Assembly: GCF_009725995.1 (NCBI RefSeq) | Contig: NZ_RCNS01000003.1 | Span: 1,061,130 to 1,125,129 of the forward strand | Direction of reading: 5' to 3' | Source: Zobellia laminariae | GTDB taxonomy: Bacteria; Bacteroidota; Bacteroidia; Flavobacteriales; Flavobacteriaceae | DNA: 64,000 nucleotides | Shown: one piece after another, positions 6,209 through 32,789 of the stretch | How the letters are laid out: each line of letters opens with the position of its first letter | Numbering within the stretch: the first letter of the stretch is position 1 | Position numbers and translations under genes: made by a program | Notes under the pieces: model-generated | Databases searched by the model: none | What the model saw: only the letters and a program-made list of their open reading frames with translations | Told to the model about the DNA's origin: nothing

Positions 6209-6368
6209 CGGTCTAATTGAGGTGTGAAAGAGGTAATATCCTATGGCACCCTTTATTTATAGGGCATTCAAAAATTAATTGCAGTCGATAAAATGTGCAA
6301 AAAAGCCAGTTATCGAACCTGATAAAATAGTATAGAATTTTAAAATCTATTTTTACTAAAGAAGTATT

Positions 6369-18300: not shown

Positions 18301-19657
18301 TTACCGTAACATTTGCATTTCCTGATTCAACTTTGGTTTCCGTACCGTCTACAACAGCTACAGATAAATCATAGTCGTTTCCTGATGGCGTTAATGTTAC
18401 CGATCCATCTGTAGAAGTAAGTGTCTGTAATTCATTATTTGGGTCTGGATCAGCATCTGGTGCTGCACTACCTCCGACTTGCTGCCAAGTTGTTCCGTCA
18501 AAAACATATAATTGCCCTGCAACATCATCAACATAAGTAACACCTGAATTTGAAGGTATTACTACTGGTGCGCCACTATCAATTAAAGTAAGTTCGTTCG
18601 TTTCATCTTCGTCAGGATCAGTAGAAGTAACCGTATAGTTTCCGTTTCCGTCATCAGCTACCGAAATGGCACCTGTTCCAGCAATTACGGTTTCTACAAG
18701 AGATGATAAGTCTACACTTGTTGAACTTCCTCTTTCTATATCTATTTGTAGTTGATTTGTTCCGCTTAAAGTTGCACCTGTCAAATTCTGATTATCACTA
18801 GCATTGGCAGCTAAATCAATAATAGCTTCCTCCACTGTTGTTTCATCCACGCTATCACCATCAACATCCAAAGGAGTTGTTAAGTTGACTTCCGTTGCTT
18901 CTTGATCATCAGTACCATCAAAACTCGTTGGCGTTCCATTCTCCGAAGTATAGGTGTAATTAACACTATCAGCTGTGGACAATGTTGTAATCGTCTCATC
19001 TATTTCCGTAAACGTTCCATCGGCTTGTGTTACCGTGGCAATTAGATTACCGGCAACGACATCTGTTATAGCGATGCCGTTCGTGTTGATATCTACATCC
19101 GTTCCATCTCCATTGGTGAATCGGTACAGACCCCCACCTAAATCAGTAATGTCTGATTTAGCTACGGTTACTGTTGCTCCTGATTCATTGGTTAGCGTAA
19201 TGTTACCATCACCAGCATCACTGATAGTAGTAATTGTTTCATTGATCGTAACTAAATCACCGTTTTCATTTTCATAAACACCAATAGCATTCCCTAATGC
19301 AGCCGTTCCCGTTAAGGTAGTAATGGTCTCTACCGGTAGGATAACTGTTGCTGTACCTCCATTTTCAAGTGTAAGAGAAAGTTCTCCACTTACATTATCA
19401 AAAGTGAAGTTTTGAAGTTGCTGATCATCGGAAGAGGTCAACTCCCAAGAATCACCATCCCAGAAATAAATTGTACCTGTATCGGTATTGACATAAATAT
19501 CGCCAATATCTGCTCCTGCAGGAGTAGGTAACCCTGGAGCGGTAACATCTGTACCGCTTAACACCTCGCAATTACATTGGTCTTCTAAATTGACCGTAGT
19601 CTGTGCAAATGTTAATCCGGAGATTAGGAAAACTAAGAGTGTAATTATTCTTTTCAT
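9377..19657 (-). CDS. Giant modular repeat surface protein with tail-fibre-like C-terminus (~3426 aa)
   Basis: The protein starts with a signal peptide, MKRIITLLVFLISGLTFAQ, from ATG 19655-19657. Further in-frame starts at 19663 and 19681 and a TTG at 19690 only lengthen the n-region. The bulk (about residues 400-2800) is a mosaic of modules that each open with an NE(I/F/L) motif and meet at Asp/Asn/Thr-rich joints. Module A is about 37 aa (EIQTVASADGSVDVV type, about twenty copies). Module B is about 34 aa (EFQDLSLTGDNLTLSDD). Module C is about 63 aa (EIQDLGIAGDQLSITGG). Module D is about 57 aa and contains GQLYVYDGSTWQQVGG. A second repeat family (SLAVNTTSNVLTVGIEDG type) fills about 2850-3100. 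The C-terminus has GNVGIGTT and GIGTSSPDARLDVEGG motifs, as in tail-fibre and trimeric fibre head regions. I see no type A or type B sorting domain. It heads an operon with a type B sorting-domain protein and PorP/SprF. Confidence 0.88.
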   Translation of the reverse strand: MKRIITLLVFLISGLTFAQTTVNLEDQCNCEVLSGTDVTAPGLPTPAGADIGDIYVNTDTGTIYFWDGDSWELTSSDDQQLQNFTFDNVSGELSLTLENGGTATVILPVETITTLTGTAALGNAIGVYENENGDLVTINETITTISDAGDGNITLTNESGATVTVAKSDITDLGGGLYRFTNGDGTDVDINTNGIAITDVVAGNLIATVTQADGTFTEIDETITTLSTADSVNYTYTSENGTPTSFDGTDDQEATEVNLTTPLDVDGDSVDETTVEEAIIDLAANASDNQNLTGATLSGTNQLQIDIERGSSTSVDLSSLVETVIAGTGAISVADDGNGNYTVTSTDPDEDETNELTLIDSGAPVVIPSNSGVTYVDDVAGQLYVFDGTTWQQVGGSAAPDADPDPNNELQTLTSTDGSVTLTPSGNDYDLSVAVVDGTETKVESGNANVTVTGDGSTATPYQISSVDLDEQNATEVPLDAPFDVDGDTVNETTVQEALEDLAANASDNQQVSSAVGTPNETVAIDLERGGSTTINIQDADADATNEIQDATEVALNTPFDVDGDTVNETTVQEALEDLAANASDNQQVSSAVGTPNETVDIDLERGGSTTINIQDADADATNEIQDATEVALNTPFDVDGDTVNETTVQEALEDLAANASDDQTLSTDGNPGNISISEGNAISLNVDDADANASNEIQTLTSTDGSVTLTPSGNDYDLSVAVVDGTETKVESGNANVTVTGDGSIASPYQISSVDLDEQNATEVLLDAPFDVDGDTVNETTVQEALEDLAANASDNQQISSTVTTPNELVNVALERGSNFDIDIRDADSDVTNELTLLGNGSPTVTPSNSGVTYVDEVAGQLYVYDGTTWNAVGGNASPDLDGNPNNEIQTVASADGSVDVVRTGDDFDLSITIPANNDNDATNEFQDLSLTGDNLTLSDDPTATAIDLSPYANNDTNEIQTVASADGSVDVVRTGDDFDLSITIPANNDNDATNEFQDLSLTGDNLTLSDDPTATAIDLGPYANNDTNEIQTVASADGSVDVVRTGDDFDLSITIPANNDNDATNEIQTVASSDGSVDVVRTGDDFDLSITIPANNDNDATNEIQDLGIAGDQLSITGGNTVTIPTADGSETIVNGAGINTVTGSGTTASPYVVTGTEVDGDITNELTFVNAGTPAATGTTGINSGETYVDTLTGQLYVYDGSTWQQVGGNASPDADPDPNNEIQTVASADGSVDVVRTGDDFDLSITIPTNNDNDATNEFQDLSLTGDNLTLSDDPTATAIDLSPYANNDTNEIQTVASSDGSVDVVRTGDDFDLSITIPANNDNDATNEIQTVVSSDGSVDVVRTGDDFDLSITIPANNDNDATNEFQDLSLTGDNLTLSDDPTATAIDLSPYANNDTNEIQTVASADGSVDVVRTGDDFDLSITIPANNDNDATNEFQDLSLTGDNLTLSDDPTATAIDLSPYANNDTNEIQTVASADGSVDVVRTGDDFDLSITIPANNDNDATNEIQTVASADGSVDVVRTGDDFDLSITIPTNNDNDANNEIQDLGIAGDQLSITGGNTITLPSADGSETVVNGAGINAVTGSGTTASPYVVTGTEVDGDITNELTFVDAGTPAATGTTGTNSGETYVDTLTGQLYVYDGSTWQQVGGNASPDADPDPNNEIQTVASADGSVDVVRTGDDFDLSITIPANNDNDATNEIQDLGIVGDQLSITGGNTVTIPTADGSETIVNGAGINTVTGSGTTASPYVVTGTEVDGDITNEIQTVASADGSVDVVRTGDDFDLSITIPTNNDNDATNEIQDLGIAGDQLSITGGNTITLPSADGSETVVNGAGINTVTGSGTTASPYVVTGTEVDGDITNELTFVDAGTPAATGTTGTNSGETYVDTLTGQLYVYDGSTWQQVGGNASPDADPDPNNEIQTITSTDGSVTLTQTGDDYNLSVAAADGTETKVESGNANITVTGDGSTTSPYQISSVDNVDDADADATNEIQDLGIVGDQLSITGGNTVTIPTADGTETKVESGNANVTVTGDGSTGSPYQISSVDNVDDADADATNEIQDLGIAGNQLSITGGNTVTIPTADGSETIVNGAGINSVTGSGTTASPYVVTGTEVDGDITNEIQTVASSDGSVDVVRTGDDFDLSITIPTNNDNDATNEFQDLSLTGDNLTLSDDPTATAIDLSPYANNDTNEIQTVASADGSVDVVRTGDDFDLSITIPTNNDNDATNEIQDLGIAGDQLSITGGNTVTIPTADGSETIVNGAGINAVTGSGTTASPYVVTGTEVDGDIRNEIQTVASADGSVDVVRTGDDFDLSITIPANNDNDATNEIQDLGIVGDQLSITGGNTVTIPTADGTETKVESGNANVTVTGDGSTGSPYQISSVDNIDDADADATNEIQDLGIAGDQLSITGGNTVTIPTADGSETIVNGAGINSVTGSGTTASPYVVTGTEVDGDITNEIQTLTSTDGSVTLTPSGDDYDLSVAAADGSETVVNGAGINAVTGSGTTASPYVVTGTEVDGDITNEIQTVASSDGSVDVVRTGDDFDLSITIPANNDNDATNEIQTVASADGSVDVVRTGDDFDLSITIPANNDNDATNEIQTVASSDGSVDVVRTGDDFDLSITIPTNNDNDATNEIQDLGIAGDQLSITGGNTVTIPTADGSETIVNGAGINAVTGSGTTASPYVVTGTEVDGDITNEIQTVASADGSVDVVRTGDDFDLSITIPANNDNDATNEFQDLSLTGDNLTLSDDPTATAIDLSPYANNDTNEIQTVASADGSVDVVRTGDDFDLSITIPANNDNDATNEIQDLGIAGDQLSITGGNTVTIPTADGSETIVNGAGINSVTGSGTTASPYVVTGTEVDGDITNEIQTLTSTDGSVTLTETNDDYNLSVNFPASSDNQNIESLAVNTTSNVLTVGIEDGTSQTVDLSHLDNTGTDNQNIESLAINTSSNVLTVGIEDGSSQTVNLSHLDNSGTDNQSIRNLTFSGNTLTVGIENGSSDTVSLAALADNQSIQGSGLSGNTLTIGIEDGSSETVNLSSLANTDNQQISLSGNIITLDNGTGANTTVDLTDFRDDQNLTSAVVVPNQSVEVQINDGTNTTIDIRDADSDATNELQDLELAGSTLTLTNPATSGNSVDLSGLADHDWYEVGGTSAPDAITDNIFTEGNVGIGTTTITNNRALDVEGNVEINDYLYMNGKNTLRATDDNYLRINWSNDYVLGTFFNGNVRMYDGLVVNERGANSDMRVEGDTETFLLFTDASSDEVGIGTSSPDARLDVEGGTVRFSDYGSNAITGTATSLLGVEADGDLVEVNSLKASKIFYPPSIEVDASTNGTGRTIDLHAQYVAQYGSPMVASASAPAAIPTYANTELYYYVTFYDTAVFANVNVNAAGVMTYDVIGQPASYNSLINVVFVVK
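10980..18440 (-). repeat. Shuffled coding tandem repeats (modules A-D and relatives)
   Basis: About 7.5 kb inside the giant gene consists of repeated coding modules of about 102, 111, 171 and 189 bases. Copies are near-identical in DNA, differing mostly at scattered synonymous positions. Module order varies (A-B-A-B, A-A-C-D, A-C-C and so on), and every junction falls in the same NDNDAT/NE context. This points to expansion and shuffling by homologous recombination at module boundaries. The number and order of copies may differ between strains and could be wrong in a short-read assembly. Confidence 0.9.
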
Positions 19658-19690
19658 GACCATTACTTTACTTAAAATCATATTGTTCAA

Positions 19691-20198
19691 AATTTCTTCA
19701 TAGCCACTTGAACAATCGTTACAAGTAGCGAACTATTTTAAACTAAAATCAAAGCTGAAATCTTACCCGGGACATTGTACTTTTTATGTACATTCTTGGT
19801 ATGGTGAAGAGGAGGTTGGTACTTCCTAAATGCCATTTGGTTTTGAAAAAAAACCTATGTCAAAATTTGGTTAAGTTATTCAGTTTTTGGGTTGTGTAGA
19901 ATCAATTCAATTGAATATGATCCAATTACACTTTACAAAATTAACCTTAGTGTTAGCAACAGAAAATAATTGTTGTATAAGTGTTAATTACTATTGTATA
20001 GGTAGAGAAAGCTGAGGTCTTGGTTTATTTTTTTCTTGTGTCAATCGTCGATAAGTTCAATAATACGACTGACTTACGAGCCATTATCCCGAAAATAAAT
20101 TCGTTGAAATACCTACTTTTTAACACTAAATGAAATGTTAATTTTATTGATTTAGAAGATAATTTTGGCCCTTTATCTGAGCTCAAATAAAAAAAATA
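19691..20198. other. Noncoding gap between two adhesin genes
   Basis: About 0.5 kb without a supported gene. It contains the candidate promoter of the giant repeat gene (19936-19980) and a perfect 12-base palindrome ATTCAATTGAAT at 19905-19916. I see no convincing Rho-independent terminator after the 1499-aa gene that ends at 20199. The implied 5' leader of the repeat gene would be about 270 bases, long for this window, so leader regulation is possible but not shown. Confidence 0.6.
19936..19980 (-). promoter_or_regulatory. Candidate promoter with shared upstream element (giant repeat gene)
   Basis: On the minus strand TAATTTTG (19936-19943) matches the -7 consensus TAnnTTTG. The element TTATACAACAAT (19969-19980) begins 33 bases upstream, nearly the same arrangement as before the 1499-aa and 1855-aa adhesin genes. 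No TTG -33 box lies at normal spacing. Confidence 0.5.
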
Positions 20199-23100
20199 CT
20201 AGTTGGGTTTTACTCTATATGTAATTCTTCTGTTAGTAATTACAGTGTACGCTTTAACCGTACTTAATGGAGAAAATTCAGATGTGGAGTTGGCTAAAGT
20301 TGCCGTGGTGGTTATCGTCTTTCCTAAGGTTATACCAACAGGCAAAGGAATACTAAATTTGAACTTATTGGTGTTATCCGTATTATTGTCTTCATCTGTG
20401 TAGGTAGAAATATTTGACTCTGAATCAGAAGCAGAACCTTCTACCATAGTATTAAGGTAGCGTTGCCCCTCCCCATAGTCATAGATCATTCCTAAAGTAT
20501 TATCACCAATGGTTGCCGTACCTTCATTAATATCTGTAGCAAACAACTCTATAGTTGCCCCTGGTCTTGACCAACCTTCTATCACTAAATTAGTTCCTGA
20601 AACGAACGCTCCAGTAATTATAGGGAAGTTAACAGCTCCATTAGGGCCATTATCACTATCCCCTGAATCATTAATTGTTACTCCATCACCAAATCCATCT
20701 GTTAAATCTAAATCAATACCTAATGCTGCACTAGCCGTTCCGTTTGCATATATAGAATTTCTAGAAATTAAGTTTCCAGATGTATTACCTCCACTTAATA
20801 CAATTCCTGCTCCGCCATTTGCAGCTATAATATTATTGACTACGGATGAGTTACTGCCGTCTAAACGAATTCCTACGTTGGCATCATCCCCCGTACATTT
20901 ACCTCCATCTTGACCTGAATTTGTAATTGTATTATCCGTAATCGTTAATGACCCAGTTATTCCTTCTGCATCAATTCCAAGTGAAGCTGCTCTATCTATT
21001 AAATTCTGCTGAATAACGATACCAGTACCTCCACTGATTTTTATATTGTCAAAACAAGCATTACTGCCGTTGTCCGTAATATGATTGTTTTGAATAGTAG
21101 TAGATGTTCCACCCGCAACCAAAATACCCTCATCTGTATTTTCTGTAATATAATTACTATCTATTATAGCTATTCCCCCAGTAACCTCAACACCATAATC
21201 TATATTACCTGAAGGATTACCAACAGCATTTACGCCTAACAAACTATGGGACACGGTAGCCGAACCACCTTGAATGATAATTCCGGCATTGTTACCTGCA
21301 CGAACAGCCAAATTACGTGTTATTACATTGGTTCCGTTTAATTGAAGAACATCTCCACCTGCACTATACAATTCTATTTCTGGTCTCTCAAAATTTGGTA
21401 AAGCCGTATTGGAATTCCCTACTCCTGTTCCTCCTAAACCTACTGTTCCAGAATTAGTATTTCCCGAATAGGCCGTTTGCGTACGACCATCAATAACGGT
21501 ATTTGTGCCTGTTACAACAGGCAACTCGTTAGGGTTTGACATGGTAAAGTTAAAATACCCATTCGCAAAATTATTATCGGGGGCTCTGCCTAAAGGGTCT
21601 GCCGTAGAGGGTATCATAAATATTGAAGTGTCTTCTCCTGCTGCTGGATCAAACAAACTATTGGCTTCTATATCCAAACCTACTTCACCTATGGTATTAG
21701 AATTCCTGATAAACTGAGTCAATGAACCCTGGCCGGTTTCATTTGTATTAACAATCGTATTAAAATTAAATCCAAAATTGATACCTACTACACCGTTACC
21801 TGCAACCTCTACGGCAGATATACTTTGCGCATTATTAAAAACACCTAGGGAAACATCTTGACCTGCTTGTGGATTAGCCCCTCCTACTTGATTAGTAATA
21901 TCTATAATATTACCAGAAACCATCTCTGTCTTGTATGTCTGAACCGGATAGCAAGAAGAACAATTTGGCCCATTATCTCTTGTAGATCTTACGGTTGAAC
22001 TTACCACTTTAACAAAGTAGTCTCCATCTGCCATTCCTCCAAATGAATAATTTCCGTTTGCTTCCGTATTTTTTCTCTGGATAAAAGTCCCTGAAGAATC
22101 AAAAAGTTCTACAATTGCTCCTGATATTCCTATCCCTCCAGATGTTAATTGATCGCGACCTGCACCACCTGGATAATTGATATCCTCAAAAACACGGCCT
22201 GCAATTAAGTTGGAAGGAACTTTTAATACCACCGCTGCAGAAATAACAAAATCTTGACCTACATCTACATTTGCCGTTACTTCACTATCTGCTGGTTGTA
22301 TAAATGACGAAATATCATACGTGTCTAAATCTACACCATACATATTTGCATTATTATAAACTGGTGGCCCTACGGTGTTATCGTAAATTGTAGAATTATA
22401 AGAGTTGTTACCCGTTTGTCCCCCATCACCTATCAAAACATTTTTCTGATTTCGCTGGTTTGTAATCGATAGTTCTTCAGGATTAGTTGAACCAGAACTT
22501 GAACCATTTAAATCCGGATCACCTTCCCATGATAAAAATGACGCTTTAGCCCCTGTTCCCGATATGGCATAAAATGAATCTAGCGTAAACGAATTACCAT
22601 CATTACTAAGTCCATCAAAACCTTGATATAAATTTATATTTACAGCTGGTAAAGAACGGTCTTCATAAAACACCATTAGTGCCCAGCCCCCTAGAACCGT
22701 ACTGGTAGTACAATATTCTCCCGTATTGTTAATCGTTAAACCGCTAAAATCAAAAACATTGCTCGATAAATTAGATACACCTTGCAATATGCTGGTTACA
22801 TCACTTACATATCCAAAGAAGTTTCTGTTACCCAGAGAGGTTTGATACAGAAAATTAGCAGAAACGCTTTGCCCTTCAAAAATTACATCTGCATCACGAA
22901 CGGTACTAGAATGAGACCAATATAAATAAGCCCTTTCTACAGTTGCTGTTGCCGGAACCGGAGAAACCAAACTATTGGACGATGATGTCGTAACCGCACA
23001 TGGACTAGCTCCATTAGGGCTCGTACGCATGGTACCTCCCGTGGTTGAATAATCATAATACCCATCAAATTCTTGAAATAGTGTTAAAGGGTCATTTGCC

Positions 23101-24698
23101 AAAATTTGTGAGTTTATGGTTCCTTTTCCTTTATCGTTATAGTTCACGACTGCATATTGAGCAGTTGCTCCTGTAAATTCTATATCAAAATCTTCAGCAA
23201 ATTCAGGTACACCATCATTAGAAATAGGTACAGATATTGTTTGGACATTGTTTAGTTCTCCCGTAAATGTTAACGTACCTGATGATGCAGTATAATCGCT
23301 ACCTGCCAGCGCCAAACCATCTACTGTTTGAAAATCTACAGTAAACGGAGATTCTACAAACCCAAATAAAAATATATTTCTACCATGTGCAGCCCTAGTG
23401 GACCTTACTGTGAATACGGCATTACCCACATCTTCATCAAAAGTTATATCATCAATTACAATAATAGGACCATCAACAAAACAATTAATTTCTGCTTCCC
23501 AACCAGCGCCTGTATTACTTCCGTTAGAAACAAATCTAAACGTAAGACAGCCAGATGCAGCAGAAGAATTTATACTTGTAGGTACATTGGCACTATCATA
23601 CTGGCCAATTAATGTACCACTGGTATTAGAACCGTCATAAACATATAGTACATCTCCCGAAACAATTTCAAAGCTTGTAAAATTTATATTTATATAAGTA
23701 TCGGCGGTATCTGGGCAAATGGTATATGTTACATCTTGATTGTTACTGTAATTAGAAAGTCCGCCAGGGTCAAAAAAGGTATCACTACAAGTGGTAACGC
23801 TACCACCATCTGTCATTATAAGAGCATCGTCATCAATAATTGTTCCTGTAGCTGTGTCACTAATATCAACCGTTGGATCAGACGCTAATGTAAATTCTAA
23901 AGTAAAATTTTCAGGATTTTCTATCGTACCATCATCTAAAATAGGAACGGTAATGGTTTCCGTATCTCCAGCAGTACCATTAAAATTTAAAACACCAGTC
24001 CTAGACGTATAGTCGCTTCCATTAACCGCCAAACCATCTACAGTTTGGTAATTCAGCGTAAAAGGTCCTGTAGTATTAGTACCTGTATGCCTAACTGTAA
24101 AAGTAGCATTGCCTGAATCTTCATCTACAGTAACATCATTAACCTCTATAACTGGGATAGGTGCGGGAAAAGTTGCCAAAATCTGAAAATTATCGATTAA
24201 TGCATAATCATCATTATTCCAATTATTGCCCGATTTTGCAAACCTTACCGTTGTGGTTGCAGAAATAAAACCAGATATGTCTCGCGTATAAGTTCCTGAA
24301 CTGTTATTCCCACTAATTGTACCTACCGTTGTATAAGATGCTCCACCATTATTGGACACCTCTATTCCCAAAGCTCTACCGTTGGTAAGACTTACAGTCT
24401 GCCAATTAAAACTAAGCACTGCTGTTGCAGCCCCATTAAGGTTAGCCGATCTGCGTATATTTTCTGCCCATATATAATAAAGTTCTAGTCTATTGCTACT
24501 TATTCTAATATATTGACTGGCAGGGCCATTGTTTGTATCCCCTGTTTCTACCCAATCTGTAGAAAAGTTAGAACTACCATTATTATTTGAATACGATACA
24601 CTGCTAAAATTATCACGATAGGTTTCCTGAGCGACCAACTGAAATGAAAACAGCAGCGCTACAAAAATGTAAAGGAATTTTAAAGAGTTATACAACAT
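20199..24698 (-). CDS. Multidomain secreted adhesin with Calx-beta, CUB and beta-helix regions (1499 aa)
   Basis: A signal peptide (MLYNSLKFLYIFVALLFSFQ, cut near LVAQ) is followed by several regions. A jelly-roll/MAM-like domain spans about 25-175. A Calx-beta domain spans about 180-290 (DEDSGNATFTV, GSDYT). A CUB domain spans about 295-405 (YTICPDTADTYININFTSFE, YVYDGS). A second Calx-beta domain spans about 410-530. A beta-rich segment of about 300 residues of unknown family follows, then an SdrD_B-like domain near 850-950 (GRVFEDIN, NYSFGGMADGDYFVKV). A right-handed beta-helix covers about 1050-1390 (repeated NNIIxxNGGAGI-type turns). The last 14 residues, VITNRRITYRVKPN, nearly match the tail of the 1855-aa protein upstream. 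No known T9SS sorting domain is present. Probable role is surface adhesion or polymer binding, which is inference. It has its own promoter region. Confidence 0.88.
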   Translation of the reverse strand: MLYNSLKFLYIFVALLFSFQLVAQETYRDNFSSVSYSNNNGSSNFSTDWVETGDTNNGPASQYIRISSNRLELYYIWAENIRRSANLNGAATAVLSFNWQTVSLTNGRALGIEVSNNGGASYTTVGTISGNNSSGTYTRDISGFISATTTVRFAKSGNNWNNDDYALIDNFQILATFPAPIPVIEVNDVTVDEDSGNATFTVRHTGTNTTGPFTLNYQTVDGLAVNGSDYTSRTGVLNFNGTAGDTETITVPILDDGTIENPENFTLEFTLASDPTVDISDTATGTIIDDDALIMTDGGSVTTCSDTFFDPGGLSNYSNNQDVTYTICPDTADTYININFTSFEIVSGDVLYVYDGSNTSGTLIGQYDSANVPTSINSSAASGCLTFRFVSNGSNTGAGWEAEINCFVDGPIIVIDDITFDEDVGNAVFTVRSTRAAHGRNIFLFGFVESPFTVDFQTVDGLALAGSDYTASSGTLTFTGELNNVQTISVPISNDGVPEFAEDFDIEFTGATAQYAVVNYNDKGKGTINSQILANDPLTLFQEFDGYYDYSTTGGTMRTSPNGASPCAVTTSSSNSLVSPVPATATVERAYLYWSHSSTVRDADVIFEGQSVSANFLYQTSLGNRNFFGYVSDVTSILQGVSNLSSNVFDFSGLTINNTGEYCTTSTVLGGWALMVFYEDRSLPAVNINLYQGFDGLSNDGNSFTLDSFYAISGTGAKASFLSWEGDPDLNGSSSGSTNPEELSITNQRNQKNVLIGDGGQTGNNSYNSTIYDNTVGPPVYNNANMYGVDLDTYDISSFIQPADSEVTANVDVGQDFVISAAVVLKVPSNLIAGRVFEDINYPGGAGRDQLTSGGIGISGAIVELFDSSGTFIQRKNTEANGNYSFGGMADGDYFVKVVSSTVRSTRDNGPNCSSCYPVQTYKTEMVSGNIIDITNQVGGANPQAGQDVSLGVFNNAQSISAVEVAGNGVVGINFGFNFNTIVNTNETGQGSLTQFIRNSNTIGEVGLDIEANSLFDPAAGEDTSIFMIPSTADPLGRAPDNNFANGYFNFTMSNPNELPVVTGTNTVIDGRTQTAYSGNTNSGTVGLGGTGVGNSNTALPNFERPEIELYSAGGDVLQLNGTNVITRNLAVRAGNNAGIIIQGGSATVSHSLLGVNAVGNPSGNIDYGVEVTGGIAIIDSNYITENTDEGILVAGGTSTTIQNNHITDNGSNACFDNIKISGGTGIVIQQNLIDRAASLGIDAEGITGSLTITDNTITNSGQDGGKCTGDDANVGIRLDGSNSSVVNNIIAANGGAGIVLSGGNTSGNLISRNSIYANGTASAALGIDLDLTDGFGDGVTINDSGDSDNGPNGAVNFPIITGAFVSGTNLVIEGWSRPGATIELFATDINEGTATIGDNTLGMIYDYGEGQRYLNTMVEGSASDSESNISTYTDEDNNTDNTNKFKFSIPLPVGITLGKTITTTATLANSTSEFSPLSTVKAYTVITNRRITYRVKPN

Positions 24699-24729
24699 TC
24701 TATATATCTACAAATAACCTAGTTTCTTT

Positions 24730-24748
24730 GTCAATAGAATTCATTGAC
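24730..24748 (-). promoter_or_regulatory. Inverted repeat in the 5' leader of the 1499-aa adhesin gene
   Basis: GTCAATAGAATTCATTGAC has 6-base arms GTCAAT/ATTGAC. It lies 32 bases upstream of the start codon. A related repeat lies at exactly the same distance before the 1855-aa adhesin gene. It could be an operator or an mRNA hairpin near the ribosome entry site. Confidence 0.55.
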
Positions 24749-24760
24749 CTTCTAACCAGG

Positions 24761-24806
24761 CAAATATATCTGTATATAAACTGTTAGTATAAATATTGTT
24801 GTGTAA
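24761..24806 (-). promoter_or_regulatory. Candidate promoter with shared upstream element (1499-aa adhesin)
   Basis: The minus strand has a perfect -7 box TATATTTG (24761-24768) and the element TTACACAACAAT (24795-24806) about 26 bases further upstream. A standard TTG -33 box is missing, so the shared element may be an activator site that replaces it. The expected start of transcription is near 24755, giving a leader of about 56 bases. Confidence 0.6.
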
Positions 24807-24989
24807 GTCCCAAATGTATGCGCAACTGGTAGATTTTTGAATGTCAACTGATTTCTAAAAGTACTTAAACCCCTGTAAAAACTCTGTCTTATCGATTAAA
24901 AGTCTATCTAAATACGGTTTTAATAAAACTAAATTATATGTTATTTAATAGACCCCTTTTTGTTCGAGTCACTATCTCTATTTAAGAAA

Positions 24990-27900
24990 TTAATTTTTCT
25001 TGACCCTCACCGTAATTCGTCTATTAGTAATAACCGATTTCACTTTAATTGTAAGTAAAGCTGCATTTGAAACTTGGGCAGCACAAGTAGTTAACGTACT
25101 CGAAACTAAAACTCTATATTGAAAATTATTTTGGGTTAAGTCCACCCCGATAACATTTAAGGTTTCTGTTTGAGTACCTGTATAATCAGGTCCATTAGAG
25201 ATATCATTAAAAGTAACTCCTCCATCTATACTTACTTGCCATTGAAAAGTATCGGCATTAGTAGTATTCACCGTAAAAACAGCATTATCATTTACAAACA
25301 CAGATTGACCTAAAGGATGCGTATCTATGGTAGACTCTGGAATAACAGCAATGACATGCTCTCCTAAATCTACCGGACATTGGTTATTACCCCAACGCGC
25401 CCATAAACGATAGGTACCAGAGGCTAAATTTGAATACGTTACAGAACCACTATTATCTGGCACTAAGGATTCATAAGAAGCTTGATTATCTAAACTAAAT
25501 TCAATTGATGATCTATTTAAATTATCAGGATAAGTAAAGCTAATTTCTCCATTATCTAAATCACAACTGGATGATGTAACGTTAACTGTAGGATTTGGCG
25601 AAGGATAAACTTTTACCTGTGCGTCATCTGACATTGTACACCCGTTAGGAAGTGTTACCGTAACCGTATATATCAAATCAGTAATTATTGTAATATCAGC
25701 ACCAGAATATGTAAAAGTTGGTTGTGCTGCACCAATATTGTCCAAATAAGCTGTTTCAACGGCCGTTGCACCAGACCACACATAACTATAATTTGGGTTT
25801 GAGGTTTGACCTATTATTCTAGAATCAGATACTTCGCAAACCGTTACATTAGATCCAGCTAAACCAGAAAGGCTTGTAGGCGAAATCATTTCTGCTTCTG
25901 AATTCGCACAAGCGCATGAGTTATTTGATGATTCAATTACTAGTACTATATTACAAACCCTGTTTGGAGATGTGGTGAAGTCAATAGAACCATTAACAGT
26001 ACTTGTTGCTGGAATCTGAACTGTCATCGTTTTAGTACCAATTAAAACATCTCCAGCTGAGAAGACTCCATTAGTATCCGCATCATAATACGCTGAAACA
26101 ATAGTACCAGTTGGCATCATAGTACCAGAAGTGTTTTCTATGGAAAAATTGGCACTGACATTCTGATCATTACCACTGACTGTTGCGGTTGTAGATGTTG
26201 AGTTTATTATTAAAGTAGATTTTTCGACAGAAATTGTTTCATCGGTCTGCGCTGTAACACTCTGAACAACCGGACAACTTGGTCCACCTGATCCTGAACA
26301 GTCAATACTTTGTTCTATTCGCGTAGCTACGTTTAAATCATAATTTTGACAACTCACATCTTCAGGTGAAACAACTTCAATTTCAAAATCGAAGGCAATA
26401 AGAGAAGTGACCCCTACTCCATCCGGAATTTGCCATTTTAATATTCGTGTTCCCGCTACTGGATCGGTTGATACTGTTGGTCCTGCAGAAGGCCCATTCG
26501 TGCCTGCTACATACGAACCTGCTACGTAATTAAATGCATCGTCAATTGTAGCAACAACAAATTCAATATCCCCATCACTTTCAATACCCTGGTTTGTAAT
26601 TTCAACTGAAATACCTTCAGTTTCATTACATGCTTGAATAGCATTATCATCAGAAGTTACCGAAATATCATAATCAATATTAGAAGGTACTTGGGTAACA
26701 TTTACGGGATTGGTTTTAATTTCACTTTGCCCATCATTAGGATCAATGGCTTGTTGACAACCAGACTCCGCATTTATTTGCGTAATTATCTTACTACCGG
26801 ATACATAATCGCAAGTAAATGCTAATTCAAAATTCACTTTAAATTCATTAGGCTCCGGAACAGATACACCAGGTAGGCCATTGGTACCGCTAATGGGACT
26901 TCCAACAATTGCAGAAATATCTATTGAATATGTATTTGTACCCGCATTAAATACAATTAGACCCGAACCTATTGCATAATCTACTGCATCATAAGTCAAA
27001 ACCCCTGAAGTATTATCGAGTACCATACCAACAGGCAATTTAATATCTGCAGCCAAAGCGTAGGCAAAGCCATTGGCAGCATTGTTTACGTCTATTGAAT
27101 ACGGTACAACATCGCAAAAATCATAAGTAGCTGGAGGTACACCAAGAGCTGTAGTTACATTAATAGAGGGGTCTTGGGTACTTAATGAAAGTTGAATGAC
27201 TTCTTCACTACAATTGTAATTACTTCCAGAACTCCCTAAGGGATAACCCGTATCAGGATCGGTAGGGTACTGACTACAATTTTGACCAACCCGGATATCA
27301 AAACTATCTGTACCACAAACGGTAAAATCATCAGACCGGATTTCCAATTGTTTACCTGCGCTTGATATGTCTCCTACTTGTGCCCAATATTTACCAGTAC
27401 CATAGCCAATAAGGGGTATTTCTGTTGTGTTATCCCAAAGTGTTGGTACAATATTGTTATTTGTAATTTCTATAGCAATCCACGTATTCTGCAAAGAAGC
27501 TCCTCCTGAGGTTGTATTATTGATATCAACTACCCATTCGGCATTTTGGGTGTTCGTAGAAATTGTAGGCGTGGGTGAACTTACGGTATAGCTTAAGGGT
27601 AAATATTGTGTATTTCTTACGTTGGTTGTTCTTCCCACATTAATAGACCTTCCTGGTAAACTTACATTTCTAAAAATTTCAAACTCTGTACTTGGCAAAA
27701 CAATGATGCCTAATCTTTCATTGGAAAAAGACCAATCTTCAATAGTACAATTTGCAACAACATTAAAATTAACGTCTTTAATTGCGTAACTAGCGGAAGC
27801 CTTTTCTTTTGACCAAGAACCATCATTCGTCCAACTGTATCTATGAAATCCTGGTTCTGCATTATAGGTAATAACAGGATCTGTTATATCATGTAAAAAT

Positions 27901-30557
27901 TCTCCATAACCTCTATAACTTGAGGTGCCTGGCACATAATCAACTCCAACCGGAACAAGAATATCTACTACTTTAGGTATGGCAAAATTTCTAAATTCAT
28001 TAGGAAAAAGGTCACCTAATATCGAATAAGTTGCATGATGAAACCGTATTCCCATTCCAAACTCATTACAACCGTTTATGGTCAAACTTTGTTGTACCAC
28101 CTGCATTGTTGGTACATCTTTATAAGCTAAGACTCCAAATTCTTCTGTGAGAAAATTACAAGTATGTTCCGTTGGATTAGCTGCGGAAGTTACCGGAGAT
28201 GAAACTAAAATTCCGGTCATAGGCATATACCTAGTATTGGAAATAGAACTATTTTCAGAGACCTTCAAATCTACATCTATAATATATCTATCACCAAGCC
28301 CCGGTGTTATTGTTGAAAAATCACCGCCCAATACATCTACTGAATGATTGCTTTTTCCTCCGTTATTTTGAACATAAGAATACTGACCTAAATTATTTGA
28401 TATTGTTGATGTGCCACCACCACTTGGAAGGTATTCAACTTGTATTGCTTTTATACCTCCGTCTGATTGTGTACCAAACCAGTTATTAGCATCATATTCA
28501 AGTAACGCTTTAGCAGAAGTAAGATTTGTTTCATTCACATCAATCTCAACATGCCATCTAACCATATCGCCCTCAAGCACATGATCTAAACGTAGACCAG
28601 AGGTACTTGCTGGAATTGGAGTAGTTTCAGTCATATCAGTATACCCTAAAGTAGTACGGTCTAGAGAAAAATTAGATACGCAAACCGATGGTCCGCCACT
28701 TGGACAGGTAACTGTAAACGTAGGACCATCTTCACAAATGTGAATAGGTTCATATGTGGAATCACCTTTTAAATGATATTCGTAAGATATACCCCCAGCA
28801 AAACTGCCAGAACAAGTTGGGTCTACCATTAATGGAATTTGTGGGTTTCTACTAATTAAATACCCATACGTTGGTGCTGAAATAGAAGAGTATATAGCAA
28901 CTCCCGTTGCTGCATTAAAACTAAGTAAATCAAAAGGTTCCGATTGCCATACACCGTTTCCATTGGGTATGATACCTGGAGGTAAAGTATAGTGAACCTC
29001 CCAATGCATACCTGGAATACTTGTAGTTGTTGGCGTTTGGCTACTTGAAGTACTTATAAAAAAATCAAAAGTGTCACCAGGACCAAAATTAGCACTTCCG
29101 CTAGATGAATTAATATTTGTAGCAATGGATTGCGTATTATAAAAACTCCAAGGACGCCACGTATTCAATCCATTATTCGGCACATTCAAGCTTGTTGAAT
29201 TACCACATTGATCTTTGTATTCGTAAGCCCAACGTACCATCGAATAACCTGCATTCATGCGATCACAAGCGGTATCATTATTTGAATCTAGTAGATAGTT
29301 ATATGCTAGTTCCGCTTCTAAGACCAATGAGTTTCCCACTGGTAAATCATCAAAAAATCCATCTCCATCTAAATCTTCCAAACCTACTCCAGCTCCGTCA
29401 GGATCTATTGTCAATTGAAAATCAGCAAAACTCCCTTCCGTTCCTTGGTTGGCAAAAGATGTCCCGTTTACATTAAAATTAGACCAGGTATAAATGTTAT
29501 AATCTGCGGGAATATAGGTCGCACCTCCATTACTAAAACCTAAATCGAGCGTAAGGTCATAAATATCTCCAGCACCTGTGCCATCATTCCGTAATAAGAA
29601 TTCAGCAGTGTCGGTAGTCGTTAATCCTGGCCAAGCTCTTTTGACTACTCTAGTATATAAGTCCGGGGCTCCCGAAGCTAAAGCAATACCTGATGTAGAA
29701 GTATTACCTGATTCACACGCGTTGGCACCAGTAATACAACCGCCATAAGCTGCTTGATATGTTATGGTTTCTCCCGCACCAGACGGGCAATTTAAAAGTT
29801 TTGCCGTTACAGTTATTGAAATATTTTCACTTTGTTCAAAGCGCGAATCATTATCACCTATAGCTGAAATTTCCACAGTATTCAATTCTAAGGTATCTGT
29901 AACCATGCCTCCCACTGGCGTCCCTAAAGAAAAATTTCCTGTACCTCCATATGAAATAGAAATATTGTCAGAATGTTCAATATAAGCTACCACATTATTA
30001 CTATAGGCATTGGAATTTACGGGGTCGTTGCCAATTGTAAAGGTAAAATCTTGTGTTTCGTCAACACGTAATGAACCCGACAAGGGTATAATAGCATTAT
30101 CAACTTCCAAAGATGAATACAAAACTGATGGGTAATCCACAGTTGTTGAAACAGAAGGATTACTAATGAGCGTATGTTCAATTTCTGGATCTATCATTGT
30201 TGAACACCCTGTCTGAACCGTATATGTTATGTCTATAAAACTTATAGTTCCAATAAGAGGTGCAGCAATAGTAAATATTGGGTTATTAGGATTAGTAGCA
30301 TCTACTGAAACCCCTGCAACAGGAGATACAAGTGCCACGAACTCTGATTGGGTAGGTAATTGAACACTTACCTGTGCATCTGCTCCAGTGGTACCATAAA
30401 GCCTAAATTGAAATGTAGATGAATCGCCACAAGCAACAACCTCCGTTGGAAGATCAGTTGACGGGTTAACCACAATATTTTGCGCTTTTAGACCTGCTGT
30501 GCTGAAAAGAAGCATCGCTACTAAAATGTAAAAGAATTTTATCGGGCTATACAACAT
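24990..30557 (-). CDS. Very large secreted adhesin with conserved-repeat (DUF11-like) and Ig-like domains (1855 aa)
   Basis: A signal peptide, MLYSPIKFFYILVAMLLFST, is cut near LKAQ. The long body is made of beta-sandwich segments like the DUF11/conserved-repeat family. Motifs of the NxVxAYIEHSD and VxIPxG type recur, and many paired cysteines are present, which suggests disulfide-stabilised extracellular domains. An SprB-like or Ig-like segment lies near 1640-1740. An Ig-like domain spans about 1750-1840 (FQWQVSIDGGVTFNDIS). The protein ends in VITNRRITVRVKKN, nearly the same tail as its neighbour. No type A or B sorting domain is visible. Start ATG 30555-30557. It lies downstream of a strong terminator and a promoter region, so it is its own transcription unit. 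The ligand is unknown; a role in adhesion is inferred from architecture. Confidence 0.87.
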   Translation of the reverse strand: MLYSPIKFFYILVAMLLFSTAGLKAQNIVVNPSTDLPTEVVACGDSSTFQFRLYGTTGADAQVSVQLPTQSEFVALVSPVAGVSVDATNPNNPIFTIAAPLIGTISFIDITYTVQTGCSTMIDPEIEHTLISNPSVSTTVDYPSVLYSSLEVDNAIIPLSGSLRVDETQDFTFTIGNDPVNSNAYSNNVVAYIEHSDNISISYGGTGNFSLGTPVGGMVTDTLELNTVEISAIGDNDSRFEQSENISITVTAKLLNCPSGAGETITYQAAYGGCITGANACESGNTSTSGIALASGAPDLYTRVVKRAWPGLTTTDTAEFLLRNDGTGAGDIYDLTLDLGFSNGGATYIPADYNIYTWSNFNVNGTSFANQGTEGSFADFQLTIDPDGAGVGLEDLDGDGFFDDLPVGNSLVLEAELAYNYLLDSNNDTACDRMNAGYSMVRWAYEYKDQCGNSTSLNVPNNGLNTWRPWSFYNTQSIATNINSSSGSANFGPGDTFDFFISTSSSQTPTTTSIPGMHWEVHYTLPPGIIPNGNGVWQSEPFDLLSFNAATGVAIYSSISAPTYGYLISRNPQIPLMVDPTCSGSFAGGISYEYHLKGDSTYEPIHICEDGPTFTVTCPSGGPSVCVSNFSLDRTTLGYTDMTETTPIPASTSGLRLDHVLEGDMVRWHVEIDVNETNLTSAKALLEYDANNWFGTQSDGGIKAIQVEYLPSGGGTSTISNNLGQYSYVQNNGGKSNHSVDVLGGDFSTITPGLGDRYIIDVDLKVSENSSISNTRYMPMTGILVSSPVTSAANPTEHTCNFLTEEFGVLAYKDVPTMQVVQQSLTINGCNEFGMGIRFHHATYSILGDLFPNEFRNFAIPKVVDILVPVGVDYVPGTSSYRGYGEFLHDITDPVITYNAEPGFHRYSWTNDGSWSKEKASASYAIKDVNFNVVANCTIEDWSFSNERLGIIVLPSTEFEIFRNVSLPGRSINVGRTTNVRNTQYLPLSYTVSSPTPTISTNTQNAEWVVDINNTTSGGASLQNTWIAIEITNNNIVPTLWDNTTEIPLIGYGTGKYWAQVGDISSAGKQLEIRSDDFTVCGTDSFDIRVGQNCSQYPTDPDTGYPLGSSGSNYNCSEEVIQLSLSTQDPSINVTTALGVPPATYDFCDVVPYSIDVNNAANGFAYALAADIKLPVGMVLDNTSGVLTYDAVDYAIGSGLIVFNAGTNTYSIDISAIVGSPISGTNGLPGVSVPEPNEFKVNFELAFTCDYVSGSKIITQINAESGCQQAIDPNDGQSEIKTNPVNVTQVPSNIDYDISVTSDDNAIQACNETEGISVEITNQGIESDGDIEFVVATIDDAFNYVAGSYVAGTNGPSAGPTVSTDPVAGTRILKWQIPDGVGVTSLIAFDFEIEVVSPEDVSCQNYDLNVATRIEQSIDCSGSGGPSCPVVQSVTAQTDETISVEKSTLIINSTSTTATVSGNDQNVSANFSIENTSGTMMPTGTIVSAYYDADTNGVFSAGDVLIGTKTMTVQIPATSTVNGSIDFTTSPNRVCNIVLVIESSNNSCACANSEAEMISPTSLSGLAGSNVTVCEVSDSRIIGQTSNPNYSYVWSGATAVETAYLDNIGAAQPTFTYSGADITIITDLIYTVTVTLPNGCTMSDDAQVKVYPSPNPTVNVTSSSCDLDNGEISFTYPDNLNRSSIEFSLDNQASYESLVPDNSGSVTYSNLASGTYRLWARWGNNQCPVDLGEHVIAVIPESTIDTHPLGQSVFVNDNAVFTVNTTNADTFQWQVSIDGGVTFNDISNGPDYTGTQTETLNVIGVDLTQNNFQYRVLVSSTLTTCAAQVSNAALLTIKVKSVITNRRITVRVKKN

Positions 30558-30588
30558 CCTATGTACCTACAAGTGACTCAACATATTC

Positions 30589-30607
30589 GTCAACAGAATT
30601 GATTGAC
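30589..30607 (-). promoter_or_regulatory. Inverted repeat in the 5' leader of the 1855-aa adhesin gene
   Basis: GTCAACAGAATTGATTGAC has arms GTCAA/TTGAC. It lies 32 bases before the start codon, exactly as in the paralogous leader at 24730-24748. The arms and spacing are kept although the central bases differ. Confidence 0.5.
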
Positions 30608-30619
30608 AGAGTTATTAGG

Positions 30620-30665
30620 TAAATATATCTGTACTTAAGTTGCTATGAGAATAATTGTTGTGTAG
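30620..30665 (-). promoter_or_regulatory. Candidate promoter with shared upstream element (1855-aa adhesin)
   Basis: TATATTTA (30620-30627, minus strand) is a one-mismatch -7 box. CTACACAACAAT (30654-30665) begins 34 bases upstream. The whole stretch from about 30560 to 30760 aligns by eye with 24700-24900, so the two adhesin promoters are paralogous. Confidence 0.55.
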
Positions 30666-30791
30666 GCCTAAAATGTAGGTGTAACTGGTGTTTTTTTCAA
30701 TGTAAGCTGATTTACAAAACTTCTTTAACACCTGTAATCATTATACTCTATCGATTAAATACCTCGCTATATAATGATATTGAAACAAAAA

Positions 30792-30819
30792 AAAGGCAGC
30801 TATTAAAATAGCTGCCTTT
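30792..30819 (-). terminator. Rho-independent terminator of the sorting-domain/PorP/OmpA operon
   Basis: A 13-bp stem (AAAGGCAGCTATT pairing with AATAGCTGCCTTT) is followed on the minus strand by eight T. It ends the operon transcribed from 37531 and insulates the next adhesin gene. Confidence 0.9.
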
Positions 30820-30841
30820 CCTAATTTATGTAAAATAAACT

Positions 30842-32779
30842 TTATTCTAAAATGATGAATTCCGATCTTCTGTTCAACTCATGGTCTTTATCAGAACATT
30901 TGACGCCATTGGCACATTTGTTAATCAGTTTTGTCTCACCAAAACCTTCTCCATCCAACCGTTCTTTAGCTATTCCCTTTTTTACCATATAATTTACGGT
31001 AGATTCGGCTCTTTTTTGTGAAAGCCAAAGGTTATAGGAATCCTTACCTCTACTATCCGTATGTGAATTTACCTTGATTCTCAAACTTGGATATTTTTCC
31101 ATAGCTGCGATTACTTTCTCAACCTCTATTTCAGAATCTTTACGAATATCATATTTATTAAAGTTGAAGTAAATAGTACTTAACTGTAACAATTTAGATA
31201 AATCATCTCCAAACCCAGCTGTTATAGAGCTTCTCTCTAAATAGAAGTCTATTTCTTTAGGTTCTCCATCAGATTTTCCTAAGTATTCTTCTGAAGGCAC
31301 ATAACCTTCTGTCATAGCTCTTACGAAATTACCTTGCGTACAATCTATCAATAAATTGTATTTACCTTCGGCATCTGTAATAGCCGACATGATTTCCTCA
31401 TTATTCTCGTCTATAACTTTTACAGAAGCACCAATAAGGGGTTGATTAGAAATCTTATCCCTCACCACACCAGAAATAGCTTGCTCACAATCAATAAGTA
31501 AAGGTTTCGTTTCTAAAAAAACATAGATATCATCAGCGCCTCGTCCTTCTGCTCTGTTAGAGGCAAAATAACCTTTTCTTGTATCTTCATTAAAAATGAA
31601 CGTAAAATCGTCCATTCTTCCGTTTACTGGTTCTCCAACGTTCATTACATTCCCGTCCAATCTACCATTGGCTATTTTAGAAGCAAAAATATCTAAGCCT
31701 CCAAGACCAGGGTGTCCATCTGAAGAAAAATATAAAACATCTTCACTCGTTACAAAAGGAAAGGTTTCTCTAGCCTCTGTATTAATAACTGGACCTAAAT
31801 TTTCAGGAGTACCATAAGTTCCATCTTCATTTATGGCTACTTTAAATATATCGGATTCACCTAAAGTTCCCGGCATATCTGATGCAAAATACAGCGCCTT
31901 TTCATCAGAACTTAATGTTGGATGTGCTACTGAGTAATCATTACTATTAAAAGGTAGTTCTTCAATTTCAGACCATACGCCTTCTACCATTTTAGCCTTA
32001 AATATCTTAAGACGTATTACTCCTGTTTCATCTTTTACATACTTACCTTCCTTAAAGTTATTTCGAGTAAAATATAGTATGTTACCATCTTTGCTTACAG
32101 TAGAAGTTGATTCATGCAATCTTGTATTAACGTGATCACCGAATTTAATAACAAACCCTTGTGAAGCACTATCTGCATTTACTTTATACAAGTCCAAGAA
32201 ATCTTTTGAATTCCATGTGTGACGATACCGAGCGAAGTTTCCAGTATCTCTATCCGAAGAAAAAATAAGACCTTCCTTATAGAAAGAAGGAGCAAACTCT
32301 GAATACGGAGAGTTATACTGAAAAGGTGATACATTGTATCTTCCAGAGTTTCTTTTAATATCGTTTAAATAGTCTTCTTCATCTTTGTAAGCAGTTGCTC
32401 TGGCATCATCAGAAGTAGCTTCTAAGAATTTTGCCATAATGGCTTTTGAACCCTCGTAATCTTCTAAAGTTTTTAAAGTTTGAGCATATCTAAAATAATA
32501 CTCTGGACCTATTTCATCCGGATACTCGTCTACTAATCTTTTGTACGTTTTAGATGCATCTTCATAATCTGCATTATAATAGTAAGAGTTCCCTAATTTC
32601 TTAAGTAAATCTGCAGAAGCGTACCCGCGATCTAATACCTTTTTATAAATGTCGATAGCAGGGCTGAAAGAATATTCGTCATATTTTTCATTGGCTTTGG
32701 TAATTAACTTTTCTTGGGCAAAACCACTTACACCCATCAAAAAGACCAAAACAAATAGAATGTGTATTTTTTTTATCAT
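30842..32779 (-). CDS. TPR / PD40 / carboxypeptidase-regulatory / OmpA-family outer-membrane protein (~645 aa)
   Basis: This is probably an outer-membrane-associated protein that grips peptidoglycan. A signal peptide begins MIKKIHILFVLVFLMG and is cut near SGFAQ. Several TPR-like helices span about 20-135. WD40-like PD40 beta-propeller repeats span about 150-420 (SSDRDTGNFARY, YFASDMPGTLGESDIFKV, YFSSDGHPGLGGLDIF). A carboxypeptidase-regulatory-like domain lies near 430-510 (ISGVVRDKISNQPLIGASVK). The OmpA peptidoglycan-binding domain fills the C-terminus (YFNFNKYDIR, VNSHTDSRGKDSYNLWLSQK, RRSEF). The ATG at 32777-32779 is preferred: a longer frame to 32821 would overlap the upstream PorP/SprF stop and spoil the signal peptide. 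The gap to PorP/SprF is 10 bases. This trio of sorting-domain protein, PorP and OmpA resembles known T9SS surface-anchoring operons. Confidence 0.9.
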   Translation of the reverse strand: MIKKIHILFVLVFLMGVSGFAQEKLITKANEKYDEYSFSPAIDIYKKVLDRGYASADLLKKLGNSYYYNADYEDASKTYKRLVDEYPDEIGPEYYFRYAQTLKTLEDYEGSKAIMAKFLEATSDDARATAYKDEEDYLNDIKRNSGRYNVSPFQYNSPYSEFAPSFYKEGLIFSSDRDTGNFARYRHTWNSKDFLDLYKVNADSASQGFVIKFGDHVNTRLHESTSTVSKDGNILYFTRNNFKEGKYVKDETGVIRLKIFKAKMVEGVWSEIEELPFNSNDYSVAHPTLSSDEKALYFASDMPGTLGESDIFKVAINEDGTYGTPENLGPVINTEARETFPFVTSEDVLYFSSDGHPGLGGLDIFASKIANGRLDGNVMNVGEPVNGRMDDFTFIFNEDTRKGYFASNRAEGRGADDIYVFLETKPLLIDCEQAISGVVRDKISNQPLIGASVKVIDENNEEIMSAITDAEGKYNLLIDCTQGNFVRAMTEGYVPSEEYLGKSDGEPKEIDFYLERSSITAGFGDDLSKLLQLSTIYFNFNKYDIRKDSEIEVEKVIAAMEKYPSLRIKVNSHTDSRGKDSYNLWLSQKRAESTVNYMVKKGIAKERLDGEGFGETKLINKCANGVKCSDKDHELNRRSEFIILE

Positions 32780-32789
32780 AAGGCAAGGT

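What the first reader, a model, noticed from the sequence alone, without database searches (positions are those of the whole stretch)
20199..30557. Two adhesins with conserved ends and unrelated cores share a 14-residue C-terminal tail
The 1855-aa and 1499-aa proteins end in VITNRRITVRVKKN and VITNRRITYRVKPN, and both start MLY..-KF-YI. Their middles are unrelated (DUF11/Ig-like versus Calx-beta/CUB/beta-helix). Neither has a type A or type B T9SS sorting domain. A short basic tail kept on otherwise different exported proteins next to PorP/SprF genes looks like a sorting, anchoring or assembly signal that I do not recognise. Alternatively, it marks cassette exchange in which ends are conserved and cores swapped.
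Basis: partly seen in the sequence, partly recalled or inferred. Interest (0 to 1): 0.75.

Follow-up and report, generated by a model that had tools for sequence, protein, structure and literature searches.

The report
C-terminal docking tag for bacterial adhesins
Many unrelated surface proteins of marine flavobacteria end in the same 13-14-residue tag, and the sampled genomes that carry it also carry a fibre protein with its own unnamed end domain, often encoded next door, so the tag probably plugs adhesins onto that fibre.

Summary
The two tails are real (12 of 14 residues identical, only 4 of 14 codons) and belong to a Flavobacteriales-wide C-terminal motif, core (V/I)ITNRRITxRV. In reference genomes 108 of 130 in-frame matches lie 12-14 codons before a stop, on exported proteins of about 17 architectures. 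No Pfam, NCBIfam or PDB match covers the tail. In three genomes a tail protein adjoins a ~4100-aa paralogue ending instead in a T9SS type B sorting domain: the tail stands where the sorting domain would. New here is a partner: the window's neighbouring 3437-aa fibre ends in an unnamed ~98-residue domain (..INVVFVVK). Among 249 Flavobacteriaceae genomes the domain occurs in 56, once each, including all 39 with a genuine tail motif (p~1e-29). In 25 loci chosen by the domain, strict tail not known, 13 of 33 adjacent genes end in a diverged tail, against 2 of 235 others. Fibre and tail genes share one promoter architecture; PorP, PorE-like and type B neighbours rarely do. Best reading: the tail docks adhesins that lack a sorting domain onto a fibre hub beside a T9SS PorE-PorP-type B anchor. 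Binding and export route are inferred, not shown.

The parts
20199..24698 (-). client gene, 1499 aa: signal peptide, Calx-beta, CUB, SdrD-B, beta-helix, C-terminal tail
20202..20243 (-). tail VITNRRITYRVKPN
24990..30557 (-). client gene, 1855 aa, no Pfam family, C-terminal tail
24993..25034 (-). tail VITNRRITVRVKKN
9377..19690 (-). hub: 3437-aa repetitive fibre (the true start may be a later Met)
   Evidence: homologues adjoin tail genes in 53 of 61 neighbour ORFs of this family
9380..9679 (-). hub end domain of ~98 aa, ..INVVFVVK, proposed socket for the tail
30621..30684 (-). regulon promoter of the 1855-aa client, 0 mismatches
24762..24825 (-). regulon promoter of the 1499-aa client, 1 mismatch
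19936..19999 (-). regulon promoter of the hub, 3 mismatches to the strict pattern; core spacing present
24647..24914 (-). repeat: promoter region and signal-peptide start of the 1499-aa gene
30506..30773 (-). the same repeat, 1855-aa gene (72% identical)
7328..9355 (-). type B CTD protein, 675 aa, next to the hub (TIGR04131 48.4 bits, cut-off 35)
6369..7319 (-). PorP/SprF family
30842..32821 (-). PorE-like TPR-PD40-CarboxypepD-OmpA protein
32790..33749 (-). PorP/SprF family
33764..37531 (-). type B-like protein, 1255 aa (TIGR04131 33.0 bits, just below the cut-off of 35)

Best explanation
The tail is a peptide docking tag. Exported adhesins that lack a T9SS sorting domain carry the 13-14-residue C-terminal strand (V/I)ITNRRITxRVxxN, which binds the ~98-residue end domain (INVVFVVK) of a usually single-copy extracellular fibre protein, the hub. 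In the window's lineage the hub and its type B CTD / PorP / PorE-like neighbours hold the assembly on the cell surface, so one fibre can display several adhesins whose genes are adjacent or elsewhere in the genome. Hub and client genes are switched on together through one promoter/activator site. Shown here: the motif and its fixed place, signal peptides, replacement of a CTD, co-occurrence, adjacency, shared promoter. Inferred: physical binding of tail to domain, the export route, surface location.
For: (1) 108 of 130 in-frame matches 12-14 codons from the stop; synonymous codons freely used. (2) 92 tail proteins, tail removed, fall into 17 clusters at >=50% mutual coverage; signal peptide by a simple rule in 80 of 92, and by eye in nine of the other 12. 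(3) CTD-tail swap: in G001, G027 and G180 a 682-705-aa tail protein adjoins a 4106-4253-aa paralogue ending in a type B CTD; seven homologues from hub-negative genomes also end in one (10 of 10 C-ends scanned pass TIGR04131 and PF13585 cut-offs). (4) Hub domain in 39 of 41 tail-pattern genomes; the two misses lie in frames of under 30 codons and read Ser; 191 of 249 have neither; Fisher p 1.1e-29. One tail checked per genome: C-terminal in 38 of the 39 (35, three), internal with the Aquimarina-type extension in G193. One domain copy in each of the 56; 1-4 strict pattern matches in each of the 39. (5) 15 of 18 genomes with both on one contig have a tail within 9 kb of the hub ORF. (6) In 25 domain-selected loci, strict tail not known, adjacent same-strand ORFs end tail-like in 13 of 33, other ORFs in 2 of 235 (p 1.2e-11). 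(7) Promoter within 350 nt upstream: tail 24/77, hub 26/40, other 6/188, PorP 1/7, OmpA 0/10, type B 0/8 in mixed genera; 11/19, 9/9, 0/19, 0/9, 0/9, 0/4 in Zobellia; opposite-strand control 4 of all, in 'other'. (8) AF2 folds the hub domain well but leaves client tail residues 206-220 unstructured, pLDDT <50. (9) The motif also stands internally in six Aquimarina loci, as a docking strand could.
Against: No binding was tested and no complex modelled. Co-occurrence is partly shared ancestry, and the Zobellia loci are near-duplicates of one another. Of 17 domain-only genomes 8 show no clear tail: G133 and G212 doubtful; G029, G038, G259 weak domain matches; G119, G166, G238 unexplained. In one search, 16 of 38 domain ORFs had no tail-like same-strand neighbour, some because the contig starts inside the domain ORF. 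21 of 39 genomes have hub and tail on different contigs, and in three (G048, G159, G192) they lie far apart on one contig as counted. Most tail genes in mixed genera (53 of 77) lack the promoter as scanned. The client model is poor (mean pLDDT 57), so its disordered tail is weak evidence. G528 has four domain copies.
Confidence: 0.6

Rival explanations
1. The tail is itself an outer-membrane secretion or anchoring signal read by the T9SS or another export device; the hub is just another cargo of the same regulon.
For: It replaces a type B CTD at the C-end; SprA is in every carrier genome of the 249-genome sample; PorP, PorE-like and type B genes recur nearby.
Against: Very short next to known CTDs of ~70-85 positions; would not explain a hub domain in all 39 tail genomes nor adjacency without PorP or type B; motif can be internal.
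Confidence: 0.2
2. The hub-domain protein is a periplasmic chaperone or secretion pilot for tail proteins rather than a surface scaffold; small 170-370-aa hub proteins would be the basic form.
For: Small stand-alone hub proteins beside a single tail gene in Aquimarina, Tenacibaculum and family f5.
Against: In Zobellia, Maribacter, Arenibacter and others the neighbour is a giant repetitive fibre, odd for a chaperone.
Confidence: 0.15
3. Cassette exchange: ends conserved by recombination while cores are swapped.
For: 5' repeat of 268 nt between the two window genes.
Against: Only 4 of 14 tail codons are identical although 12 of 14 residues are; tails keep their sequence across genera with free synonymous codons.
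Confidence: 0.03

Closest known systems
T9SS type B CTD with its PorP/SprF shuttle (TIGR04131/PF13585; PMC12618676, PMC9143113)
   Same: C-terminal signal on large exported adhesins, paired with a dedicated partner, often one operon; the window loci carry PorE-like, PorP and type B genes
   Different: 13-14 residues instead of ~85; no sequence match; proposed partner is a fibre-end domain, not a beta-barrel; tail and CTD replace each other
PEP-CTERM/exosortase, GlyGly-CTERM/rhombosortase, LPXTG/sortase (recalled)
   Same: short C-terminal tag on many unrelated exported proteins; PEP-CTERM genes also share a regulatory motif (recalled)
   Different: no hydrophobic stretch before the basic tail by eye; no sorting-enzyme family among the recurrent neighbours
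Cohesin-dockerin and donor-strand adhesin systems (recalled)
   Same: modular attachment of unrelated proteins to a scaffold by a terminal element
   Different: no sequence relation found; fold comparison inconclusive; binding not shown
PF26696 (precomputed label on many hub homologues)
   Same: appears to be a Pfam entry for small hub proteins
   Different: gave no hit in the local Pfam scan; its name and boundaries could not be read; no paper in the held library mentions it

Membership tests
T9SS type B CTD substrate | C-terminal TIGR04131 / PF13585 domain | tested here: not met
   no match to the 1499- or 1855-aa proteins at E<=0.1 in NCBIfam, none in Pfam at E<=0.001
T9SS type A CTD substrate | C-terminal TIGR04183 / PF18962 domain | tested here: not met
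   same scans
T9SS substrate in the wide sense | Sec signal peptide and a genome with SprA | tested here: met
   signal peptides; SprA in 56 of 56 domain-positive genomes
T9SS substrate in the wide sense | secretion depends on SprA | not testable with these tools
   needs mutants
PEP-CTERM / GlyGly-CTERM / LPXTG sorting substrates | motif, transmembrane stretch and basic tail; NCBIfam models (their presence in the library is recalled) | tested here: not met
   no such model listed at E<=0.1; sequence before the tail is polar and strand-like by eye
Hub domain as a known sequence family | match in the Pfam or NCBIfam copies, or in the PDB by sequence | tested here: inconclusive
   no significant match; but homologues carry precomputed PF26696
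Hub domain, known fold | clear structural match | tested here: inconclusive
PorE-PorP-type B anchoring operon beside the clients | PorE-like (TPR-PD40-OmpA) protein, PorP/SprF and type B protein encoded together | tested here: met
   window neighbours (the 1255-aa type B match is 2 bits under its cut-off); such genes recur within three ORFs of tail genes: type B 34, OmpA 27, PorP 21 loci

The most novel reading that the evidence does not exclude
A two-part tagging system unknown so far: a 13-residue C-terminal strand is a portable plug and the INVVFVVK end domain of one giant fibre is its socket, letting flavobacteria load unrelated adhesins without sorting domains onto a T9SS-anchored fibre, with socket and plugs under one dedicated regulator that in Zobellia also drives a multi-copy sRNA family.
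Probability: 0.45. Interest if true: 0.9.

Novelty: new variant of a known kind. Interest (0 to 1): 0.8.

Why it matters
It would give Bacteroidota a further way, besides type A and type B sorting domains, to put large adhesins on the surface, explain a class of exported giants without any sorting domain, and supply a short portable tag with a defined partner domain. It makes direct predictions: the tag alone should move a reporter onto the fibre, and removal of one hub gene should strip several unrelated adhesins at once. The shared promoter opens the regulator of the whole set to search.

Tried and rejected
RNA element: the conserved 5' leader was first taken for a structured RNA; folds are not clearly better than shuffles (z -1.50 and -0.66) and Rfam gives only a sub-threshold L20_leader match (30782-30875) over a terminator-like hairpin upstream of it. 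It is read as a promoter region instead.

PorP/SprF as the constant partner: rejected, because L274, L275, L276 and L279 pair hub and tail without PorP or type B among the listed neighbours, and a PorE-PorP-type B locus without the hub domain (L357) has no tail gene beside it.

Isopeptide link between the tail Asn and a hub Lys: considered from sequence; no Lys is among the invariant domain columns, so dropped.

sprC-sprD-sprB-sprF of F. johnsoniae as the same locus: a lead from memory, followed only through papers; not settled.

Fold of the hub domain: weak cadherin-, tailspike- and cohesin-like rows, none trusted. PHROGs: weak matches to families of unknown function only. The first single-linkage clustering of tail proteins chained 88 of 92 through shared modules and was replaced by mutual coverage.

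Absent cases told: 16 of 38 domain ORFs had no tail-like same-strand neighbour.

Full report
WHAT IS THERE. The window looks Zobellia-like: the closest named homologue of the 1499-aa C-end is from Zobellia roscoffensis, and the nearest held genome shares 49% of sampled 31-mers. Two neighbouring minus-strand genes encode exported proteins of 1855 and 1499 aa that end VITNRRITVRVKKN and VITNRRITYRVKPN. Neither has a T9SS sorting domain. The tails share 12 of 14 residues but 4 of 14 codons. Their N-terminal likeness is part of a 268-nt direct repeat covering the promoter region and signal-peptide start.

THE TAIL IS A WIDESPREAD C-TERMINAL MOTIF. Of 130 in-frame matches 108 lie 12-14 codons before a stop. 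Read against the record titles, the C-terminal ones that name a genus come from Flavobacteriaceae genera such as Maribacter, Aquimarina, Tenacibaculum, Cellulophaga, Arenibacter, Robiginitalea and Zobellia, apart from one labelled Cytophaga sp. FL35; family placement of the genera is from knowledge. In 107 of the 108 tails that fit an alignment pattern, the residue before the motif is V, I or L in 105 and the last residue is N in 83; positions inside the motif are fixed by the search itself. Variants found through homology widen it: VITNRKITYRV, VITNRRITFRATAN, VISNRRITIRV, and NP-type tails such as LITNPMIYQKVD. In six Aquimarina loci the motif is internal, followed by about 115 residues.

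CARRIERS. 76 tail proteins with a start from named contigs and 21 from the window and its nearest genomes make 97; five short ones with unreliable starts were dropped, leaving 92. A simple signal-peptide rule passes 80 of 92; of the other 12, nine show a signal peptide by eye and three (L001, L062, L102) have doubtful starts. With the tail removed they form 17 clusters at 50% mutual coverage and 29 at 70%.

TAIL IN PLACE OF A SORTING DOMAIN. The IgGFc/DUF11 family gives a natural experiment. In G001, G027 and G180 a tail protein of 682-705 aa adjoins a paralogue of 4106-4253 aa that is 56-59% identical to the G001 tail protein over its residues ~2-662 and ends in a type B CTD. Of 40 hub-negative genomes 8 had hits (9 in all, one to the DUF11 part only, one genome with two). 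The seven C-ends scanned there and the three tandem paralogues all pass the TIGR04131 and PF13585 cut-offs (10 of 10). A hub-positive genome, G168, also has a homologue with a type B-like end, read by eye.

THE PARTNER. Among ORFs within three of 134 tail genes the commonest family (61 ORFs in 56 loci, 53 immediately adjacent) is the homologue of the window's 3437-aa neighbour: a repetitive fibre ending in a ~98-residue domain that finishes INVVFVVK. In Aquimarina and Tenacibaculum the same domain sits on a protein of about 170-370 aa beside the tail gene. It has no significant match in the Pfam and NCBIfam copies or in the PDB by sequence; many homologues carry the precomputed label PF26696, which I could not read.

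CO-OCCURRENCE. The same 249 Flavobacteriaceae genomes (235 genera) were searched for both. Tail pattern: 41. Domain: 56, one copy each. Both: 39; neither: 191; Fisher p 1.1e-29 with the false matches kept in. I then read one match from each genome: 38 of the 39 are C-terminal (35, three) and G193 has the Aquimarina-type extension; the two tail-only genomes (G054, G135) read Ser in frames of under 30 codons. Of the 17 domain-only genomes nine carry a clear variant tail: G030, G046, G069, G110, G236 and G239 next to the domain, G034, G053 and G073 by a relaxed pattern. G133 and G212 are doubtful. G029, G038, G259 (weak domain matches), G119, G166 and G238 show none. In a 345-genome draw from the phylum the domain was in 13, four of them in another family of the order.

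ADJACENCY. Of the 39, 18 have tail and domain on one contig and 15 of these within 9 kb of the hub ORF; 21 are on different contigs. In 25 loci chosen by the domain where the strict tail was not known, adjacent same-strand ORFs end tail-like in 13 of 33, all other ORFs in 2 of 235 (Fisher p 1.2e-11). In L274, L275, L276 and L279, from the second family, no PorP or type B gene is among the neighbours listed, so the hub-tail pair is the more constant unit.

SHARED PROMOTER. Blind k-mer counts in upstream DNA put CACAACA first among 7-mers (28 of 71 against 3.0 expected; 14 of 21 in the Zobellia set against 0.9); the reverse complement of ACAACAA is rare (3 of 71, 1 of 21). Of 69 aligned sites, TAnnTTTG (the Bacteroidota -7 box, recalled) starts 34 nt after ACAACA in 24, 33 nt in 6 and 40 nt in 1, and a weaker TAnnTTT at 34 in 10; 23 had no such box in reach and 5 had it elsewhere. 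The consensus is TnAC-N16-T-nn-ACAACAW-nnn-TT. Frequencies by gene class are in the evidence field. Seven Zobellia-genus genomes hold 115 sites with at most one mismatch, the reversed pattern 3. In G003 the sites precede a tail gene, type B-like and type A-like proteins, a sigma-factor-like gene and a kinase-like gene, named by eye; at eight sites no clear ORF follows within about 500 nt, and four of these start near-identical short stretches ending in a hairpin and T-run.

HOW IT MOST LIKELY WORKS. Hub and client are exported by Sec. The type B protein, PorP and PorE-like protein beside them match a known surface anchor: a PorE-PorP-PG1035 complex was found in P. gingivalis (PMC9143113, abstract seen), and F. 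johnsoniae has five operons with these three kinds of gene, one thought to hold its adhesin statically (PMC12618676, abstract and Discussion read). SprF family and PG1058-like genes are induced on macroalgae in Zobellia (PMC9296495, passages). I infer that the fibre is tied to this anchor and that its end domain takes up the tails. How hub and clients cross the outer membrane is open.

NOVELTY. The strings ITNRRIT, NVVFVVK, TNRRITYRV and NRRITHRV and PF26696 occur in no paper of the held library, which lacks most subscription journals. Other papers touched: PMC12635249, PMC9723704 and PMC9870892 (passages only); the rest were seen in listings.

Noticed in passing
L200 (two sites), L201, L202 (G003:C2 ~1270569, 1270865, 1291025, 1650768; a diverged one ~1301143): Near-identical starts of short unannotated stretches, each after a TTCACAACA-N13-TTCACAACA promoter and followed by a GC hairpin with T-run: a likely multi-copy sRNA family in the same regulon; no Rfam match at gathering threshold.
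   Followed up: partly
L205 and L211 (G003:C2 ~889716, ~2597263): A second short ORF-less stretch, much alike between the two sites, after the same kind of promoter.
   Followed up: no
L199 and L206 (G003): Two tiny proteins (115 and 107 aa) that look like little more than a signal peptide and a type A-like C-terminal domain, in the same regulon (by eye).
   Followed up: no
L203 (G003:C2 ~4170966): A sigma-factor-like gene (193 aa, by eye) preceded by the regulon promoter.
   Followed up: no
window 1-6051 (-), promoter 6164-6227: A large exported-looking ORF runs off the window start and has a regulon promoter upstream; its G003 counterpart is in L212.
   Followed up: no
L002, L014, L034, L057, L089, L107: Aquimarina proteins in which the tail motif is followed by a conserved ~115-residue extra domain ending like GCVSFYKL.
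   Followed up: partly
L357 (G424): PorE-PorP-type B locus preceded by a 795-aa fibre-like protein with a coiled-coil-like end instead of the hub domain, and no tail gene listed.
   Followed up: partly
window 9377-19690: Pfam prok_STING and DUF2793 matches to the repetitive fibre look spurious.
   Followed up: no
L277, L278 (G528): A genome with four hub-domain matches, two genes in tandem, beside a client of over 3500 aa.
   Followed up: no
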